Assembly: GCA_000827265.1 (NCBI GenBank)
Contig: KN834766.1
Span: 429,061 to 493,060 of the forward strand
DNA length: 64,000 nt
Direction of reading: 5' to 3'
From: Collybiopsis luxurians FD-317 M1
Lineage: Eukaryota > Basidiomycota > Agaricomycetes > Agaricales > Omphalotaceae
A program made the position numbers and the translations under genes. A model generated the notes under the pieces. It was given only the letters and a program-made list of their open reading frames with translations, had not been told where the DNA came from and made no database searches. Below are positions 40,642 to 62,476 of this stretch, piece by piece (the first letter of the stretch is position 1; each line of letters opens with the position of its first letter).

Positions 40642-43600
40642 ATGGTCACCGACGTCGCACCCGTCGCTGGTCCATCCTCCCTCCCAGCTAACGACCCAAG
40701 CGGTAAACCAAAAAGTAAAAGAAAACGTCCTATTACCGAACCATCATCTTCATCCGCTAGTACTCCTAAACCTTCACGGAATGACGACGGCGACGGCGAT
40801 GAGGAACGGAGGTCTTCTAAACGTAGGAAAAAGAGAACTAAAGGGAAGGAACGGAAGAAGACTGAGGGGCTAGAAGAAGAAGTGGGAGTAGGGGCTACTG
40901 GAAAGGCTGTGAATGGGGAGAATGGGAATATCTCGTCGTTTGATAATACGGCTGATTTTATTGCGCTTTTGGACGACAGTGGTGGTGAGGAAGAGGGTGA
41001 GAGGGAACGAGATGACCGTAAAGGAAAGGGAAAAGAAAAGGATTTCCAGAGGGAAGGGGACAGTCGTGACCTGGGTGCAGATAGGTGGAATGGCAGACAC
41101 CGCAGTCGGAGTAGAAGTCTAGACGGCAGAGGAGGTCGGGACCGAGCTAGAGACAGAGACAGAGACAGAGACAGAGATAGAAAAGGTTCGCACATGAAAT
41201 GGTTATGACGGGCATACCATTCACATCTAACTAGGCCGCGAAAGAACGCCGGAACGGGAATGGGATAGAGGAAAACGCAAGGACAGAGACAGGGACCGTC
41301 GGAGATATGAGCAGCCTGTATCCGCCAGTGTAAGGCCCATTGGGAACAGGAAAACCCCTTGGCTTGAGGGTCTGGATTTACTTGGGTGTCATAATGTCGC
41401 CGAGCTGCAAGTATCTCATCAAAATTCATGCTCAAATTTTTCACTGACAAATCCTCAGACTACACAAGGAAGTCGAAGCGTTCACCAAGTGGATATCACC
41501 CTCTCCCGTCGAGGATGAAATCCGTGGCTTACTCGTCACTCAGATCAATTCTGCTATCACTTCTAGATTCTCTGACGCTCAAGTGTTTCCGTTCGGCAGC
41601 TACGCTACGAAACTCTACCTACCCACAGGGTGAGTCCTCCCTGTCATACATATATTGTGCTTCCAGATCCTCAACAATACTCCCAGTGACATTGATCTAG
41701 TGGTCATGTCAGAGACCATGCGCGTAACCGACAAGCACATCGTCCTCCGCTCAATGGCCGAGGTCATTAAACGAAACGGGATTGCCTCCAACGTGAGCAT
41801 CATCGCCAAAGCCAGAGTCCCCATCATCAAATTCGTCACCACCCTCGGACACATTCCTGTCGATATCAGCATCAACCAAGGCAACGGCACCGTAGGCGCT
41901 GACGTTGTCAATGGGTTCTTACGGGACATGTCTACGTCCACCATCACCACTACCTCATCCCCCAACAACCAAATCCTCCAAGGCAGCCTCGCCCTCCGCT
42001 CCCTCGTCCTCATCACCAAAATGTTCCTAAGCCAAAGGCACATGAACGAAGTCTACACCGGCGGCCTCGGCAGCTACTCCATCGTCTCCCTCGTCATCTC
42101 CTTCCTCCAAATGCACCCCAAAATCCGCCGCGGCGAGATCGACGCCGATCGGAATTTGGGTGTGCTGCTGATCGAGTTTTTTGAGCTCTATGGGAGTTTT
42201 TTTAATTATGAGAATGTGGGGATTTCGGTGAGGGGGGGTGGGATGTATTTTGGGAAGAGGCAGAGGGGGTGGTATGATGAGGGGGGGTTTAATGGGAGGG
42301 GAGGGGGAAGGGGAGGAGGAGGAGGGGGAGGGGCGGGGATGTTGAGTATTGAGGATCCGATTGATTTTTGTGAGTGGATTATTATTCTATATTATATTAT
42401 GCTGAGAAAGGAAAACTGTTGCTAGCGAATGACATCTCATCCGGCACCTACGGCTTTCCCAAAGTCCGAGCGACCTTTGCAGGCGCTCATCAGATCTTGA
42501 CGGCTACTGCGTATTTGAAGGCTGGGATTTTGAGTGCGAGGAGGTCTGGGCGGCTGACGAGTCTGCGGGGATCGGGGTCAGGTTCGAGAGAGAGCTGGAG
42601 GAGGGAACGGGAAAGGGATAGGGGGAGGGGGAGGGGAAGGGACGATGGATACAGGTATGGATACGGGGATAGGTATGACGAAGATGATGATTATAGACCG
42701 GAGGAGATGAGTATTCTGTCACATATCGTCGATGTTGGGCAAGATGTGAGTGTTTTTTTTCTTCTTCTTTTCACCTTTGCTCCGGTCAGTTGTTGACGAT
42801 TCTCTCTCTGTCTTTTTAACTCTCTGTAGATCATCAATCACCGGAAGGTAGTCCAGGAGGTTTACGACAGACAGGTTTTGCATGATCTGTTGGGCGTCAA
42901 GCCTAGAGCTTCTGCAGCTGGAGGAGTTGCGTCTTCTACATTGGCGACGAAGTCGGGTGCTCGGGCGAAAGGGGTCAACGAAGACGGTCACGGAGACGGA
43001 CGTAGTCGTCGTCGTCGAGACCGGGACCGAAGTCGAAGCCGAAGCCGAAGTCGAGGCCGGGACATTGAGCTTGAGGAGGGAGAGATATCGATGATGATTT
43101 CTAGTGATTCGGATGCTGTCGTTGGGAGGGAGAAGAATCGTCATGATGGTCATAGTCATAGTCATAGTCAACATCCCCGTGATCGTCCCCATTCCCCTCG
43201 TCGGCGATCGTTATCTAGAGGGAGGAAGGCGGATTCAGATGACGATGATGAGGACGATGAGGTGATGGAGAAGGAGGAGGAGGAGGAGTCTGGGAAGTAC
43301 GGGATTACTTCGCGTGCGAATTCGAAGTCAAGGACGACGACGAAAACGACGGCGATGAAGACGAGGACGGGGCAGAGCTCGAGCCAAAACGGAGCGCTAC
43401 TACCGCTGATGTCACCTCCAAGGAAGAGGAGGAGACTTGGGGGTGCTGTAGATTCGCATACGGTTTTCACTGTGGATAGTACTGATGACGATGAGGATGA
43501 TGGGACGAGTGAAAGCGGTAGTGGGAGTGATGATGAGGACAGTTTGGCTAGGGAGGAAGAGGAGTATGATATTGAGATCGATTTCGATGATGATGGCGGG

Positions 43601-55422: not shown

Positions 55423-56628
55423 ATGATCCTCAAGGACGGACTGGCACCCTCTCTGCCAACGATTGGAGGGCGTAACGTAGACGTTAAAGATCTGGCCCTC
55501 GCTCTCTACACACATCGCCCGTCGTCAACATATCGCAGAGACCGCCTTGCGGAACTTGGCAAAATGGTGTGTGTCGGAACCTGAACATCTTGTCGCGTTT
55601 CAAAAATTCAAGTCTATAACCTACATGTTCTCATTCGAATTGTATTTGTGCACAGGCTCTTGGTCTGGTTGTCACAGACCACCTGTTTATATCACAAACT
55701 AGCTTTGACGGTGAACAGATCGAGGTAAACCAAATCCTTTTGAACTGTTGATTGATCTCCCGCTGTTGATGCCGTCTCAAACACAGAGCAAACGGGATTC
55801 TGTAGTGGCCGACGAGACAATCTTGCAATGGCTCGATCTCTACCCGGATGAAAAACAGCGTTTCCTCGAGCGGGACGGTGTCAGTGCCTCTTCCAGTGAT
55901 ATCCCCAAGGTAAGTCTTATACGGGGTTGCAGTTCCTGCCTTTTGCTCACATGAGACTTTAGGAACTGTGCGCGTTCTTCCTCTCATATATGGGAGCAGT
56001 CTATCTCAGTCAAGGCCGGTCAATTCGTCCAGTTCTTGAGGATTGGGTTTTAGAGTTGGTGAATTTGGAGAGAGATGAACCCTCCGATGAGCCTTCTACT
56101 GAATCTTCATCTGTGGATCCCCCGCCTCCCAGCTATGCTTCAGCTCCTCCTCTTGCTACACCTCCTTCATCTCCCGTTCAACGAAGGGAACCTTTTTCTT
56201 CATCGACCTCAATCAACCACACCTCACCAGGTCTGCACTCTCCCGATGGTCCATCTCCCAGGAGTGAGCCGGTGCCGAAGTTTACTCTGGAATTGGCGAA
56301 TCAATTACAAGGTCAAAATCGAGCTTATCTCACTTATCAAGACGTACGAGAAGGTGGGAGTGCGCATCAGCCCGAGTGGCTTGCACAGTGCCTAGGTAGG
56401 CGTGTTTCAACCTATTATTCTCATAATTATGCTAACAATCTTATCCAGTCAATGGAATTGAAAAGGGTCGCGGTACAGGCAAAAGTAAGAAGAATGCTAG
56501 AGAGCGAGCGGCACGCGAGGCGTAAGTCGATTGATATTTCTACCACCACCACTAGCATCACGCTGACAATCTTTACTCGTTACAGGAGTATACAATTAGG
56601 ATGGATCAAGGAAAGCGATTGGAGTTGA
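55423..56628 (+). CDS. RNase III-like (inactive) plus dsRBD protein 1
   Basis: Six exons (55423-55566, 55656-55724, 55787-55909, 55963-56395, 56449-56521, 56586-56628) give 294 residues. The first part follows the RNase III fold: DLALALYTHRPSS, RDRLAELGKMALGLVVTDHLF, SVVADETILQWLDLYP and FFLSYMGAVYLSQGR, matching the usual ALTHRS, NERLEFLGDAVL and DxxEALIGAIYLD. All four catalytic acids differ (E to D, E to A, D to K, and D/E to A/L), so it should not cut RNA. A Ser/Pro linker follows. The C-terminus is a dsRNA-binding domain: ELANQLQGQNRAYLTY, HQPEWLAQCLVNGIEKGRG and the basic GKSKKNARERAAREA. It is the most diverged member and keeps the clearest ALTHRS-like motif. Likely role: dsRNA binding without cleavage. 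Confidence 0.8.
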
Positions 56629-57210
56629 CGCAGAAGCTGGTGTGCAGGATCTACTTAGAATATGTATCTATATGAGTATGATCTTTGAGCGCTGTTTGAG
56701 TATCCAAATCTGCAGACCGTGGAGCTTCAGTCGAGGTTTACGTCCAATTATATGGGTAAAAGCATCTTATGAGGTAAGTAAGTGTAACTTAGAATAACTC
56801 GGCACATAAGGATCCACGACGTGCCCTGGCTTTCCGGTACTTGTTTGCAGAACCGACCTGAGCAACTGTAGTACGCGGTCAACACCGTCGTCGCGTAGGT
56901 CACGGTGATGAATATTTTTAGCCTTGTTCATGAACTTCTTTATTCGCAGTTCTGGGCGAACACGCCTCTGTGGCGTGTCATCTTCTATTGACCCACAATC
57001 GAAGGTTTAGGGCAATCTTACCTCCGCTTTGAATTCCATCGATAAAGAAGCACGCTACTTTGAAATTTTCAGCGTCAGGACCCACAGCTTATAAAGGATC
57101 GGACCAGCAGATTATAAAAGCTTCATATCCTGAGCGAGTAATTATCTGGTTCCCTTACACGTGCAAGTGGTCCTCCAGAAAATACAGTCCACCCTCGCTT
57201 CGAAGTAGCC
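56629..57210. other. Spacer of the array with promoter of gene 2
   Basis: The stretch from about 56,785 is repeated before gene 3 (from about 58,730): both carry 'aataactcgg(c/t)', 'ttcgcagttct' and 'ggaccca'. This shows that the duplication unit includes the upstream region. Confidence 0.7.
57090..57095 (+). promoter_or_regulatory. TATA box of array gene 2
   Basis: TATAAA in cacagcttataaaggat, 121 bp before the ATG at 57,211. Confidence 0.6.
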
Positions 57211-58558
57211 ATGATTACCACGAATGTGCCAGCTAGCAACTCTTCTGCGCCAGCTTTACCAACAATCGTCGGAGGAAAAGCATATGCTCAAGACTTAATT
57301 CCAGCTTTGTATGCGCTTCAATGTTCAGGACTTATTGAGCTAGGGAAAATGGTAAGTGTGGTCGAATCGATGTAATGCTTATCCTCCCACACGTATTGTT
57401 GATGCAGGCTCTCCAACTTGTCACAACGGACTTCATATTCGCTTCGCAGCCACTTTTGAGTGAGGAGGGTATCGAGGTACGTACTTATCGTATTCAAGAA
57501 TTACTCTTTCGTTTTATCATCTCCATCAGGCCAAGCGGACTTCTATTTTGGAGGACGATACGATCCTAATGTGGCTCGATTTGTATCCTCAAGAAAAAGA
57601 AAGATTCCTCCGACAGCAACGCCTTGATCCCCGAAGCGACAATCGCAAGGTAAATTTCCTGCTGCTGGGATTACTGCCCGCCTAATAACTTCAATATCTC
57701 GGGACGGTAGGCTTTAGTTTCATTTTTTCTCTCCTACATCGGTGCAGTTTATACCAACAACGGCCGAGCAACCCATCCTGTTCTCCAAAACTGGGTTGTC
57801 AAGCTCATAACCTTGCCACGAGTTGAATCAGTGTTCGACCCCACAGCCAAGTCCCTTTCTAATGTTTCGTTGTCGGAGCAGTGTGCACCGCCTGATTATG
57901 CCTCTGGTTCATCGAACACTTCGAGGCTTCCTACCCCTCCTTCCTCTCCAGTTCAGCCGCCACGTCTACATGTCCAGCCTACCCATTCAGATTCATCCAT
58001 TTATTCTTCTGGATCAACTTCGTCTAATACTTCATTGTCATCACCAAATATTTGTTCGCCATATCCACAGCCTTCTCATGGCTCAACGACACTAGCTCAT
58101 CCGTCCACTTCAGTCAATCCTTCATCGTTGACCATCTGTTCACCCCTGCCACCTCCTAATGTCCCTGCTCAATCTTCTAGATTGTCATTGTCCAATACCC
58201 CCACTTCCAATGTCCCTCCTTCATCAAAGATCACTGTGCAGATGGTAAATGAAGCAGCAGCACGAAATAGGTATCATATATCATATCCAGAAGAGCAGGT
58301 CGGACCTGATCACATGCCTGACTGGATAGTACGCTGCCTAAGTACGTTTACATTGCTTCAGCCTATACTGATGGATGCTCTCATAACCTTACCACAGTTG
58401 ATGGTAATGAAAGAGGAAGGGGTATAGGCAAAACCAAAAAGGATGCCAGACAGCAGGCAGGTTGTGAAGCGTAAGTTTGGGTCTCTATAATTGACAGCTA
58501 GTGAATTCATGTGTGCATCTGTTTCATTTCTAGCTACATATGGATGAACAGACAATAG
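57211..58558 (+). CDS. RNase III-like (inactive) plus dsRBD protein 2
   Basis: Exons 57211-57351, 57408-57476, 57530-57649, 57711-58341, 58398-58470 and 58534-58558 give 352 residues. The exon plan matches gene 1. The RNase III-like half reads PALYALQCSGLIELGKM, LQLVTTDFIFASQPLLSEEG, ILEDDTILMWLDLYPQEKER and FFLSYIGAVYTNNGRA. As in gene 1, none of the acids of the two signature motifs is kept. The Ser/Thr/Pro linker is about 110 residues. The dsRBD reads MVNEAAARNRYHISYPEE, DHMPDWIVRCLIDGNERGRG and GKTKKDARQQAGCEA. The basic KKDA loop needed for RNA phosphate contacts is intact, so RNA binding is likely even though cleavage is not. Confidence 0.82.
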
Positions 58559-59170
58559 GATTACCGACTTATGGTCCTGTGTGTCACGGTCGACTATCGT
58601 ATTTCGAATATTAACATTTTACCCATTGTCAGTATTACCATCTATATAACTGGCTGGCCAAAATATAAACTTGAAATGGAGTGTCAATGACGAGCTACGG
58701 CCTGGTACAGCTGATAATCGCGTTGTAACTTAAAATAACTCGGCTCATAAGGATCAACGACGAGCCCTCGGCTTCCAGAACTTTGTTTGCAGACCCAAAT
58801 TGAGCAACCATGTAGTACGCGGTCGATATCGTCGTTGCATAGGAGACGAATATTTTTAGCCTTTCTCTTGAACTTCCGTATTCGCAGTTCTTACCGAACA
58901 TGCCTCTGTTGCGTGTCATCCTCTATAGACAGGGTTGACCCACAATCGGAGGTTTAAGACATTCCTACTACCGCTTTGAATTCCATCGTTCAAGAAGCAT
59001 GCTACTTTGACAGGAATTTTCAGTGCTAGGACCCACAGCTTATAAAGGACGGACCCACAGCTTACAAAAGCTTCGTATTTTAAGCGGGCAATCATCTGGT
59101 TTCCCCTCACGGTTCTACACGTGTTGGTTCCCCAGAAAATACAGTCCTAAGTCGGACCTCGCTTTGCCCC
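58559..59170. other. Spacer of the array with promoter of gene 3
   Basis: Repeats the spacer before gene 2. TATAAA at 59,041-59,046 lies 125 bp before the ATG at 59,171. Confidence 0.7.
59041..59046 (+). promoter_or_regulatory. TATA box of array gene 3
   Basis: TATAAA in cccacagcttataaaggac, the same context as for gene 2. In gene 4 the matching place reads cacagcttacaaaa, so that box is mutated. Confidence 0.6.
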
Positions 59171-60523
59171 ATGATTACCACCAATGTGCCAGCTAGCAAT
59201 TCTTCTGCGCCTGCGTTACCAACAATCGTCGGAAGAGAAGCGTATGCTCCCGAACTGATGCCAGCTTTTTATACGCTTCAATGTTCCGGACTTATTGAGC
59301 TGGGCAAACTGGTAAGTGTGGTTGAATCGATGTAATGATTGTTCTCCCATGTGTATTGTTGATGCAGGCTCTCCAACTTGTCACAACGGACTTCATATTC
59401 GCTTCGGAGCCACTTCTGAGTGAGGACGGTATCGAGGTGCGTACTTATCGTATTCGAGAGTCACTCTTTCATTTTATTATCTCCATTAGGCCAGGCGAGC
59501 TTCGATTTTGGAGGACGATACGATCCTAATGTGGCTCGATTTGTATCCTGAAGAAAAACAAAGATTCCTCCGACAGCAACGTCTTGATCCCCGAAGCGAC
59601 AATCGTAAGGTAAATTTCCTGCTGCTGGGATTACTGCCCGCCTAATAACTTCAATACCTGCGGACGTTAGGCTTTAGTTGCATTTTTTCTCTCCTACATC
59701 GGGGCAGTTTATATCAGCAATGGCCGAGCAACCAATCCCGTTCTCCAAAACTGGGTTATCAAGCTCATAACCTTGCCACGAGTTGAATCGGTATTTGACC
59801 CCACAGTCAAGTCCCTTTCCAATATTTCATTGGCGGGGCAGTGTTCACCTCCCGATTATACATCTAGTCCTTCAACCGCTTCGAGGTTTCCCCCTCCTTC
59901 CTCGCCAACTCAACCCTTGCGTATACATGTTCAGCCTGCCTGTTCAGACTCGAATATATCCACTCATTCTTCTCGATTAACTTTGTCTAACACTTCACTG
60001 CCACAAAACATTCGTTCGTCATATCCACTGCCTTATCATGGCTCGGCTACACTAGCTCATCCCTCAGCTTCAGTCAGTCCTTTGTCATCGACTATCCGGT
60101 CACTGCCGCCACCTTCGACTATCCCTGCTCATCCTTCTAGATCGTTATTGTCCAATGTCCCCTCCTCCACTGCCCCTCCTTTATCAAAGATTACTCTGTC
60201 GATGGTAAACGAAGCCGCAACACGACATGGGTATCCAATATCATATTGGGAAGATCCGCCGGTCGGACCTGGTCATCAGCCTGATTGGGTAGTACGGTGC
60301 ATGAGTACGTCTATGTTTCTTCCGCCCATACACGAATGCCGTTCTTACAATCTTACCGCAAGTTGATGGTCATGAAAGAGGAAGGGGTGTAGGCAAGACC
60401 AAGAAAGATGCCAAAATGCAGGCAGGTCGCGAAGCGTAAGTTTGGATCTCTTTGATTGACAAGTGATAGTAAATTCATGGATACATTCGTTTCGTTTCTA
60501 GCTACTTATGGATGAACGGATGA
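59171..60523 (+). CDS. RNase III-like (inactive) plus dsRBD protein 3
   Basis: Exons 59171-59311, 59368-59436, 59490-59609, 59671-60304, 60363-60435 and 60502-60523 give about 352 residues. It is very close to genes 2 and 4. RNase III-like parts are PAFYTLQCSGLIELGKL, DFIFASEPLLSEDG, SILEDDTILMWLDLYPEEKQ and FFLSYIGAVYISNGRAT. The dsRBD reads MVNEAATRHGYPISYWEDPP, HQPDWVVRCMIDGHERGRG and GKTKKDAKMQAGREA, ending YLWMNG. The linker is Ser/Pro-rich and the frame is fully open. From the middle of exon 4 to the last exon it is nearly identical to gene 4, introns included. Confidence 0.82.
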
Positions 60524-61123
60524 TAGGATTACCGACTAATGATCCTGTGTGTCACAGTCGGCTATCGTATTTTGAATATTAATATTTTACCCATTGTCAG
60601 TATTACCATCTATGTAACTGTAGCTGACCAAAATATAAACTTGAAATGGAAGATAGGATAGGACAGGATGTATATTATACTGGCCAAGGTCCGATTCCCG
60701 AACGACCAGTTTACCATAATGTACATACTACTGCAGAGTACATGGTCTTCCCCATTTCAATAATGCATGCGTTTCTTGAATGATTCATGGTATATAAAGA
60801 AGCTCCGATGCATGAAATATCTCTAATTGTTCTCTTGAGCTTCCGTATTCGCAGTTCTTACCGAACATGCCTCTGTGGCGTGTCATCCTCTATAGACAGG
60901 GTTGACCCACAATCAAAGGTTTAAGACATCTTACAACAGCTTTGAATTCCATAGTTCAAAGAAGAATGCTACTTTGACAGGAAATTTTCAGTGCCAGGAC
61001 CCACAGCTTACAAAATCTTCGTATTTTGAGCGAACAATCATTTGGTTTCCCCTTACGGTTCTACACGTGCTGGCCCTCCAGAAGATACAGTTCTAAGTCG
61101 AACCTCGCTTTATCCCGATTCCC
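60524..61123. other. Spacer of the array with promoter of gene 4
   Basis: Partly repeated from the other spacers (from about 60,840), with about 200 bp of unrelated sequence at 60,650-60,835. The TATA-like tatataaag at about 60,790 is distant from the gene; the box kept in genes 1-3 is mutated here. Confidence 0.65.
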
Positions 61124-62476
61124 ATGATTACCACCAATGTGCCAGCTAGCAATTCTTCTTCGCCTGCTTTACCAGCAATCGTCGGAGGAGAAGGATATGC
61201 TCAAGAATTGATACCAGCTTTTTATGCGCTTCAATGCTCCGGACTTATTGAGCTAGGAAAGATGGTTAGTGTGGTCGAGTCAGCGTAATGCTTATTCCCC
61301 CATACGTTTGGTTGATGCAGGTTCTCCAACTTGTTACAACGGACTTCCTATTCACTTCGGAGCCACTTCTGAGTGAGGAGGGTATCGAGGTACGTATTTG
61401 TCATATTCAAGGGTCACTCTTTCATCTCATTATCTCCGTTAGGCCAGGCGAACTTCGATTTTGGAGGACGATACAATCTTAATGTGGCTCGATTTGTATC
61501 CTGAAGAAAAACAAAGATTCCTCCGGCACCAACGTCTTGACGCCCCAAGAGACAATCGCAAGGTAAAATTCCTGCTGCGGATTACTTCCCGCCTAATGAC
61601 TTCAGTATGTGGGGAGATAGATTTTAGTTGCATTTTTTCTCTCCTATGTGGGCGCAGTTTATATCAGTAATGGCCGATCAACCTATCCTGTTCTCCAAAA
61701 CTGGGTTACCAAGCTCATAACTTTGCCGCGAGTTGAATCGGTATTCGACCCCACAGTCAAGTCCCTTTCCAATATTTCATTGTCGGGACAGTGTCCACCT
61801 CCTGATTATACATCTAGTCCCTCAACCGCTTCGAGGTTTCCTACCCCTCCATCCTCTCCAGCTCAACCCTCACGTATACATGTTCAGCCTACCGGTTCGG
61901 ATATATTAACTCATTCTTCTCAATTAACTTTGTCTAACACTTTATTGCCATCACTAAATATTCGTTCGCCATATCCACTGCTTTATCATGGTCCGGCTAC
62001 ACTAGCTCATCCCTCCGCTTCAGTCAATCCTTCGTCACCGACTATCCGGCCACTGCCGCCACCTCCGACTATCCCTGCTCATCCTTCTAGACCGTTATTG
62101 TCCAATGTCCCATCCTCCACTGTCCCTCCTTTATCAAAGATTACTCTGTCGATGGTAAACGAAGCCGCAACACGACATGGGTATCCAATATCATATTGGG
62201 AAGATCCGCCGGTCGGACCTGATCATCAGCCTGATTGGGTAGTACGGTGCATGAGTACGTCTATGTTTCTTCCGCCCATACACGAATGCCGTTCTTACAA
62301 TCTTACCGCAAGTTGATGGTCATGAAAGAGGAAGGGGTGTAGGCAAGACCAAGAAAGATGCCAAAATGCAGGCAGGTCGCGAAGCGTAAGTTTGGATCTC
62401 TTTGATTGACAAGTAATTGTGAATTCATGGGTGCATTTGTTTCGTTCCTAGTTACCTATGGATGAATAGACGATAG
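61124..62476 (+). CDS. RNase III-like (inactive) plus dsRBD protein 4
   Basis: Exons 61124-61264, 61321-61389, 61443-61562, 61621-62254, 62313-62385 and 62452-62476 give about 353 residues. The same domain order holds: PAFYALQCSGLIELGKM, DFLFTSEPLLSEEG, SILEDDTILMWLDLYPEEKQ, FFLSYVGAVYISNGRST, a Ser/Pro linker, and a dsRBD identical to gene 3 up to GREAYLWMN, ending RR. The open frame and splice sites are intact. The three upstream paralogues, the shared promoter block and the near identity of the 3' half to gene 3 point to recent duplication or gene conversion. Confidence 0.82.

What the first reader, a model, noticed from the sequence alone, without database searches (positions are those of the whole stretch)
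55423..62476. Tandem array of four dsRNA-binding proteins with an RNase III fold stripped of its catalytic acids
Seen: each protein carries an RNase III-like half (ELGKMAL...VVTD, LSYMGAVYLSQGR) and a C-terminal dsRBD with an intact basic KK(N/D)A loop. Known: RNase III needs acids in NERLEFLGDAVL and DxxEALIG. Here those places read RDRLAELGKMAL or SGLIELGKM, and AFFLSYMG or VSFFLSYIG, so all four acids are absent in all four copies. Inference: the copies kept the dimer-forming fold and RNA binding while losing cleavage, and then multiplied. Such proteins could shield dsRNA, compete with Dicer, or dimerise with active enzymes as RNAi modulators or in mycovirus contexts.
Basis: partly seen in the sequence, partly recalled or inferred. 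Interest (0 to 1): 0.87.

Follow-up and report, generated by a model that had tools for sequence, protein, structure and literature searches.

The report
Tandem dead-RNase III dsRNA-binding mushroom genes
A mushroom genome carries four neighbouring copies of a protein that looks like the RNA-cutting enzyme RNase III but has lost its cutting site while keeping its RNA-gripping part, and it is one branch of a wider mushroom family of such non-cutting relatives whose job is unknown.

The parts
55423..56628 (+). copy 1, 294 aa; exons 55423-55566, 55656-55724, 55787-55909, 55963-56395, 56449-56521, 56586-56628
   Evidence: gene model; identical to deposited P0001; Pfam dsrm 41.3 bits; AlphaFold mean pLDDT 82.1
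57211..58558 (+). copy 2, 352 aa; exons 57211-57351, 57408-57476, 57530-57649, 57711-58341, 58398-58470, 58534-58558
   Evidence: gene model; identical to deposited P0003; AlphaFold mean pLDDT 72.9, both domains mostly above 90, linker low
59171..60523 (+). copy 3, 352 aa; exons 59171-59311, 59368-59436, 59490-59609, 59671-60304, 60363-60435, 60502-60523
   Evidence: gene model; Pfam dsrm 36.9 bits; dN/dS to copy 2 0.46
61124..62476 (+). copy 4, 353 aa; exons 61124-61264, 61321-61389, 61443-61562, 61621-62254, 62313-62385, 62452-62476
   Evidence: gene model; Pfam dsrm 37.9 bits; dN/dS to copy 3 0.39
55537..55566 (+). copy 1 degenerate RNase III signature (RDRLAELGKM in place of NERLEFLGDA)
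   Evidence: the DNA motif lies at 55552, 57337, 59297 and 61250 in the four copies
55969..56004 (+). copy 1 degenerate second acid motif (CAFFLSYMGAVY; the D and E places read A and L)
60194..60493 (+). 3' tract of copy 3 nearly identical to copy 4 (62144-62443), intron 4 included; looks like gene conversion or a younger exchange
   Evidence: 100-base windows 0.99, 1.00, 0.94 here against 0.80-0.92 over 59200-60093

Best explanation
The four genes encode non-catalytic RNase III relatives (pseudo-RNase III plus dsRBD). They bind double-stranded RNA through the C-terminal dsRBD (inferred from an intact contact signature). The RNase III half lacks the residues that hold the catalytic metals (shown at sequence level) and has become a constrained scaffold or protein-contact module. 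The most likely action is as a dsRNA-binding adaptor or modulator: they hold or present dsRNA to, or withhold it from, the fungus's active RNase III enzymes (three loci taken as Dicers and one RNase III with all four acids in this genome), possibly by pairing asymmetrically with one of them. The family is old in Agaricomycetes. In the Collybiopsis lineage one member diverged quickly and was multiplied to four, copies 2-4 last. Shown: fold (copies 1 and 2), acid loss, family-wide loss, purifying selection among copies 2-4, tandem history. Inferred: dsRNA binding, partner enzyme, pathway.
Against: No binding, cleavage, localisation or expression data. The dimer ball residue is Glu in 4 of 4 copies, so pairing through the usual junction is doubtful. 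No partner was identified and complexes could not be predicted. In the family at large the first Lys of KKxA is Gln in 103 of 124 rows, so RNA binding may differ between members. Constraint on the dsRBD between copies is less certain: for c2/c3 the bootstrap range of dN/dS is 0.27-1.38 and dN<dS in 265 of 300.
Confidence: 0.52

Rival explanations
1. Stand-alone dsRNA sequestration: the proteins act alone (monomeric or with a new dimer mode), coat dsRNA and damp RNA silencing or dsRNA toxicity, without partnering an active RNase III. Copy number simply raises the dose.
For: Intact dsRBD signature in 4 of 4; dimer ball residue charged in 4 of 4; tandem copies under purifying selection.
Against: For c2/c3 and c2/c4 the RNase III half changes least (dN 0.062 and 0.089 against 0.184 and 0.166 in the dsRBD), hard to explain if only RNA coating mattered. 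For c3/c4 it is the reverse (0.077 against 0.012), because of the shared 3' tract.
Confidence: 0.24
2. Altered nuclease: like Mucor R3B2, the divergent RNase III half still cuts RNA, for instance only single-stranded RNA, by other residues.
For: R3B2 has a divergent signature, dimerises through its RNase III half and degrades only ssRNA in vitro (passages of the review PMC8072676). Three of four Mucor R3B2 paralogues also carry a Lys at one catalytic place (PMC4395119 passages).
Against: In R3B2 the essential Asp is replaced by another acid (Glu), and most R3B2-family proteins keep acids at the catalytic places (PMC4395119 passages). Here no place is acidic in 4 of 4 copies, and 79 of 120 family rows have none. 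One dsRBD here, two in R3B2.
Confidence: 0.1
3. A structural role like that of mitoribosomal protein mL44, a known RNase III-fold plus dsRBD protein of the mitochondrial ribosome.
Against: Neither mL44 Pfam model is listed up to E 1 for any of the four copies. Rnt1 and P. stipitis Dicer score higher. Another locus, C27:360-361 kb, carries a weak mL44 dsRBD match (E 0.0975, below cut-off, the only one) beside a weak RNase III match. Four diverging tandem copies would be odd for a ribosomal protein.
Confidence: 0.05
4. Decaying duplicates: the copies are drifting pseudogenes of an RNase III.
For: Loss of catalytic residues; long branch to the array clade (0.77, 1.08 for the RNase III half).
Against: All four frames are open across six exons; dN/dS point estimates are below 1 in all 9 domain-by-pair comparisons of copies 2-4, though for the dsRBD of c2/c3 the bootstrap range crosses 1; the loss of acids is shared with a wide family.
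Confidence: 0.04

Closest known systems
Class I RNase III of fungi (Saccharomyces Rnt1; Pichia stipitis Dicer 7dey; Cryptococcus Rde3)
   Same: RNase III fold followed by a dsRBD; Rnt1 and 7dey are the best structural matches of both models; [quoted passage not shown]
   Different: All four catalytic acids replaced here; dimer ball residue charged; the Rde3 sequence was not compared
Trypanosoma KREPB6/7/8 non-catalytic RNase III subunits
   Different: No zinc finger among the Pfam matches of the array proteins; partner, compartment and pathway unknown; descent not compared
Mucor R3B2 family
   Same: Fungal, divergent RNase III half with paralogues, part of a non-canonical silencing pathway (passages)
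   Different: R3B2 has two dsRBDs, keeps an acid (Glu) in place of the essential Asp and cuts ssRNA; the array has one dsRBD and no acid at the four sites
mL44 of the mitoribosome
   Different: No mL44 Pfam match; tandem multiplication; a separate, weak mL44 candidate locus exists

Membership tests
RNase III enzymes (class I) | RNase III endonuclease-domain fold | tested here: met
RNase III enzymes (class I) | Catalytic acids E40, D44, D107, E110 (Aquifex numbering) | tested here: not met
   no acid at any of the four sites in 4 of 4 copies; motifs gapless against Rnt1
RNase III enzymes (class I) | Ribonuclease_3 Pfam model above its cut-off | tested here: not met
   16.6-23 bits against 27 in 4 of 4
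RNase III enzymes (class I) | Hydrophobic ball residue of the dimer junction (Phe41) | tested here: not met
   Glu in 4 of 4, Phe in 10 of 10 bacterial rows; meaning of the residue from PMC3991619 passages. The acid-bearing L044 has His, so the criterion is not absolute.
dsRBD (dsrm) proteins | dsrm model above its cut-off, with GxxH and KKxA contacts | tested here: met
   36.9-41.3 bits against 23 in 4 of 4; contact residues in 4 of 4
dsRBD (dsrm) proteins | Binds dsRNA | not testable with these tools
   needs a binding assay
mitoribosomal mL44 | Match to the mL44 Pfam models PF22892 or PF22935 | tested here: not met
   neither listed up to E 1 for 4 of 4 copies (HMMER's filters drop most matches above about 0.1)
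mitoribosomal mL44 | Location in the mitochondrial ribosome | not testable with these tools
   no localisation data
Mucor R3B2 | Two dsRBDs after the RNase III half | tested here: not met
   one dsrm stretch in 4 of 4
Mucor R3B2 | Cleaves ssRNA | not testable with these tools
   needs an assay
Dicer | Two RNase III domains with helicase and PAZ | tested here: not met
   294-353 aa, one RNase III half, no helicase or PAZ among the Pfam matches up to E 1

The most novel reading that the evidence does not exclude
Agaricomycetes evolved an RNA-silencing adaptor (the role that dsRBD proteins such as R2D2, Loquacious or TRBP play in animals) from an RNase III itself. The metal site was turned into a neutral or basic, metal-free RNA-holding groove, and the hydrophobic dimer ball was replaced by an acid that may pair with a basic socket residue (K/R there in 59 of 90 rows with an acidic ball against 11 of 31 others, not corrected for relatedness). 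In Collybiopsis this adaptor was multiplied into a small array of diverging copies.
Probability: 0.18. Interest if true: 0.78.

Novelty: new variant of a known kind. Interest (0 to 1): 0.55.

Why it matters
Non-cutting RNase III relatives are known as structural or partner subunits (mitoribosome, recalled; trypanosome editing complexes). Here is a family spread over many mushrooms, with an RNase III half and a dsRBD and no catalytic site. The listings of five literature searches (titles and abstract starts, 15 of 34 papers listed) showed no paper on it. It includes a Coprinopsis cinerea member (CC1G_02981, P0074), so whether fungi use dead RNase IIIs as dsRNA adaptors or silencing modulators can be tested in a model mushroom, with the Collybiopsis array as a natural copy-number expansion.

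Tried and rejected
Local, recent loss of catalysis: rejected. The acids are also missing in the dispersed paralogues L043 (= P0108) and L045 and across the family. I looked for a family member with all acids; none of the 120 alignable rows has them. Limits: 55 of the 175 hits were not listed and not examined, 4 of 124 aligned rows were dropped for gaps at a catalytic site, and the protein search finds only relatives that share short exact words with the query.

Pseudogenes: rejected on open frames and dN/dS. Between copy 1 and copies 2-4 most dS values could not be computed (saturated), so no dN/dS is used for those pairs. NG86 was the only method.

Orthology of copy 1 to C. confluens P0002: unresolved. 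The whole-protein tree pairs them at SH-aLRT 95; the RNase III-only tree puts P0002 outside the array with weak support (88/52). P0002's deposited model also lacks most of the dsRBD.

Phage collection search with copy 1 DNA: no match. DNA pattern for the signature: 11 hits, 4 of them the array's; weak evidence on its own (shuffle mean 5.55; 3 of 100 shuffles reach 11).

The primary R3B2 biochemistry paper is not held; its results are taken from passages of a review.

Neighbourhood: I scanned 7 of the 16 non-array ORFs of 200 aa or more in the window with Pfam, as single ORFs without splicing. The two that flank the array directly gave no match above cut-off (one none, one Dehydrin at 18.9 bits against 30.6). 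Synteny in other species could not be tested.

Full report
What is there. The window is part of the Collybiopsis luxurians FD-317 M1 genome: two of the four modelled proteins equal deposited C. luxurians proteins on a contig of the same length as the window's contig. Four genes lie head to tail on the + strand: 55423-56628, 57211-58558, 59171-60523, 61124-62476. Each has six exons; exons 2 and 5 are 69 and 73 bases in 4 of 4. Copies 2-4 repeat with spacings of about 1.96 and 1.95 kb, flanking DNA included. Copies 3 and 4 are 94-100% identical over 60194-60493, intron 4 included, but 80-92% over 59200-60093, which looks like gene conversion or an exchange.

The acids. A profile of six family members aligns to Rnt1 without gaps inside either catalytic motif. 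In Aquifex numbering (recalled; columns were fixed on L044, and 8 of 10 bacterial rows carry all four acids there, 2 having Asn at D107) the four copies read A/K/A/L, I/K/S/L, I/K/A/L and I/K/A/L at E40, D44, D107 and E110. An acid does sit one residue after E40 (Glu at position 41), but that is the place of the Phe ball of the dimer junction (PMC3991619 passages), and in a helix it should point elsewhere (inference).

A family, not a local accident. A search with a Phlegmacium relative gave 175 proteins at E <= 1, the best 120 listed; the listed ones that name an organism are all Agaricomycetes as far as I recall their taxonomy, among them Coprinopsis, Pleurotus, Armillaria, Mycena, Moniliophthora, Amanita, Jaapia and polypores. 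I aligned 124 rows: these 120 plus P0001, P0002, P0003 and P0023; metagenomic rows carry no organism. 120 have letters at all four sites: 79 have no acid, 40 one, 1 two (P0119); none keeps more than one exact residue, 16 keep one. The sites are neutral to basic (net 0 to +2 in 111 of 120), D107 being K or R in 71 of 124. In the tree the 125-row family stands apart (98) from L044 and five bacterial enzymes; the array and C. confluens P0002 form one clade (100), near rows of Lentinula, Gymnopus and P0108. The root is a midpoint and L044 is a long branch, so descent from an L044-like enzyme is plausible, not shown.

Paralogues in the same genome. L043 (C1:892 kb, deposited as P0108) has the same six-exon layout, with 69- and 73-base exons, and also lacks the acids (A/K/K/C). 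L045 (C1:1151 kb) lacks them too (S/A/L/Q) and falls in another clade of the family. L044 (C5:48 kb) has all four acids; its best solved relative is the P. stipitis enzyme. Three loci with paired RNase III-domain matches, taken as Dicers, lie on C67, C104 and C152. So cleavers with acids coexist with at least six relatives without them (four in the array, L043, L045).

Selection. Between copies 2, 3 and 4 dN/dS is 0.39-0.46 over the whole protein and 0.30-0.39 in the RNase III half, with dN<dS in 299-300 of 300 bootstraps for that half. The dead RNase III half is thus kept, which argues against decay and for a non-catalytic job of that half. Results against a simple reading: for c3/c4 the dsRBD is the more conserved part, because of the shared 3' tract; and for c2/c3 the dsRBD's dN/dS (0.58) has a bootstrap range that crosses 1. 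Against my adaptor model: the dimer ball is Glu in 4 of 4 copies and polar or charged in 100 of 124 rows, which by the cited passages precludes the standard junction. A rewired or asymmetric contact remains possible: rows with an acidic ball have K/R at one socket place in 59 of 90 cases, others in 11 of 31 (relatedness not corrected; bacteria have Arg there too, 10 of 10).

Mechanism. Shown: fold, loss of acids, family-wide loss, constraint, tandem history. Inferred from conserved contact residues: dsRNA binding. Inferred from precedent (trypanosome editing endonucleases, where only one of two RNase III proteins is competent; abstract of PMC9508840) and from the presence of enzymes with acids: an adaptor or modulator role. 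A Rnt1-related RNase III, Rde3, is needed for endo-siRNAs in the basidiomycete Cryptococcus (PMC6643885, abstract and passages), which makes a silencing link worth testing but does not show it. A mycovirus link has no evidence here.

Literature. Searches for inactive fungal RNase III, Agaricomycete RNase III families, the Coprinopsis locus tag, and mushroom or Coprinopsis RNase III proteins listed no paper on this family (titles and abstract starts only; 15 of 34 listed; the library lacks most subscription papers). Seen of papers: passages of PMC6643885, PMC4395119, PMC12663654, PMC8072676 and PMC3991619; abstract and outline of PMC9508840.

Verdict. A real, well-founded observation. The novelty lies less in the array than in the wide mushroom family of RNase III-dsRBD proteins without catalytic acids, of which the array is a multiplied branch.

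Noticed in passing
window 41634-42422 (+): An ORF with a Cid1-family poly(A) polymerase domain (PF03828, 62 bits; PF22600, 43.7 bits), about 13 kb upstream of the array. A terminal nucleotidyltransferase (Rde4) is an RNAi factor in Cryptococcus, but the nearness may be chance.
   Followed up: partly
L048 (G000:C1:453500-456500, minus strand): Further dsRBD-like gene pieces without a recognisable RNase III half, weakly resembling the family's dsRBD (17-23 bits).
   Followed up: partly
L032, L037 (G000:C13) and L036 (G000:C165): Short stretches with RNase III signature-like motifs (for example RLETLGDTVLKLV), isolated; they look like decayed Dicer-type RNase III pieces.
   Followed up: no
L026 and L028 (G000:C104:155 kb and C152:41 kb): Two Dicer-like loci whose translations are nearly identical in the RNase III region, so a recent duplication or two haplotypes.
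   Followed up: no
P0002 (Collybiopsis confluens D9757_011119): The deposited model ends inside the dsRBD and lacks the KKxA helix; possibly missed exons.
   Followed up: no
window 60194-60493 and 62144-62443: Near-identical 3' tract of copies 3 and 4, intron included.
   Followed up: partly
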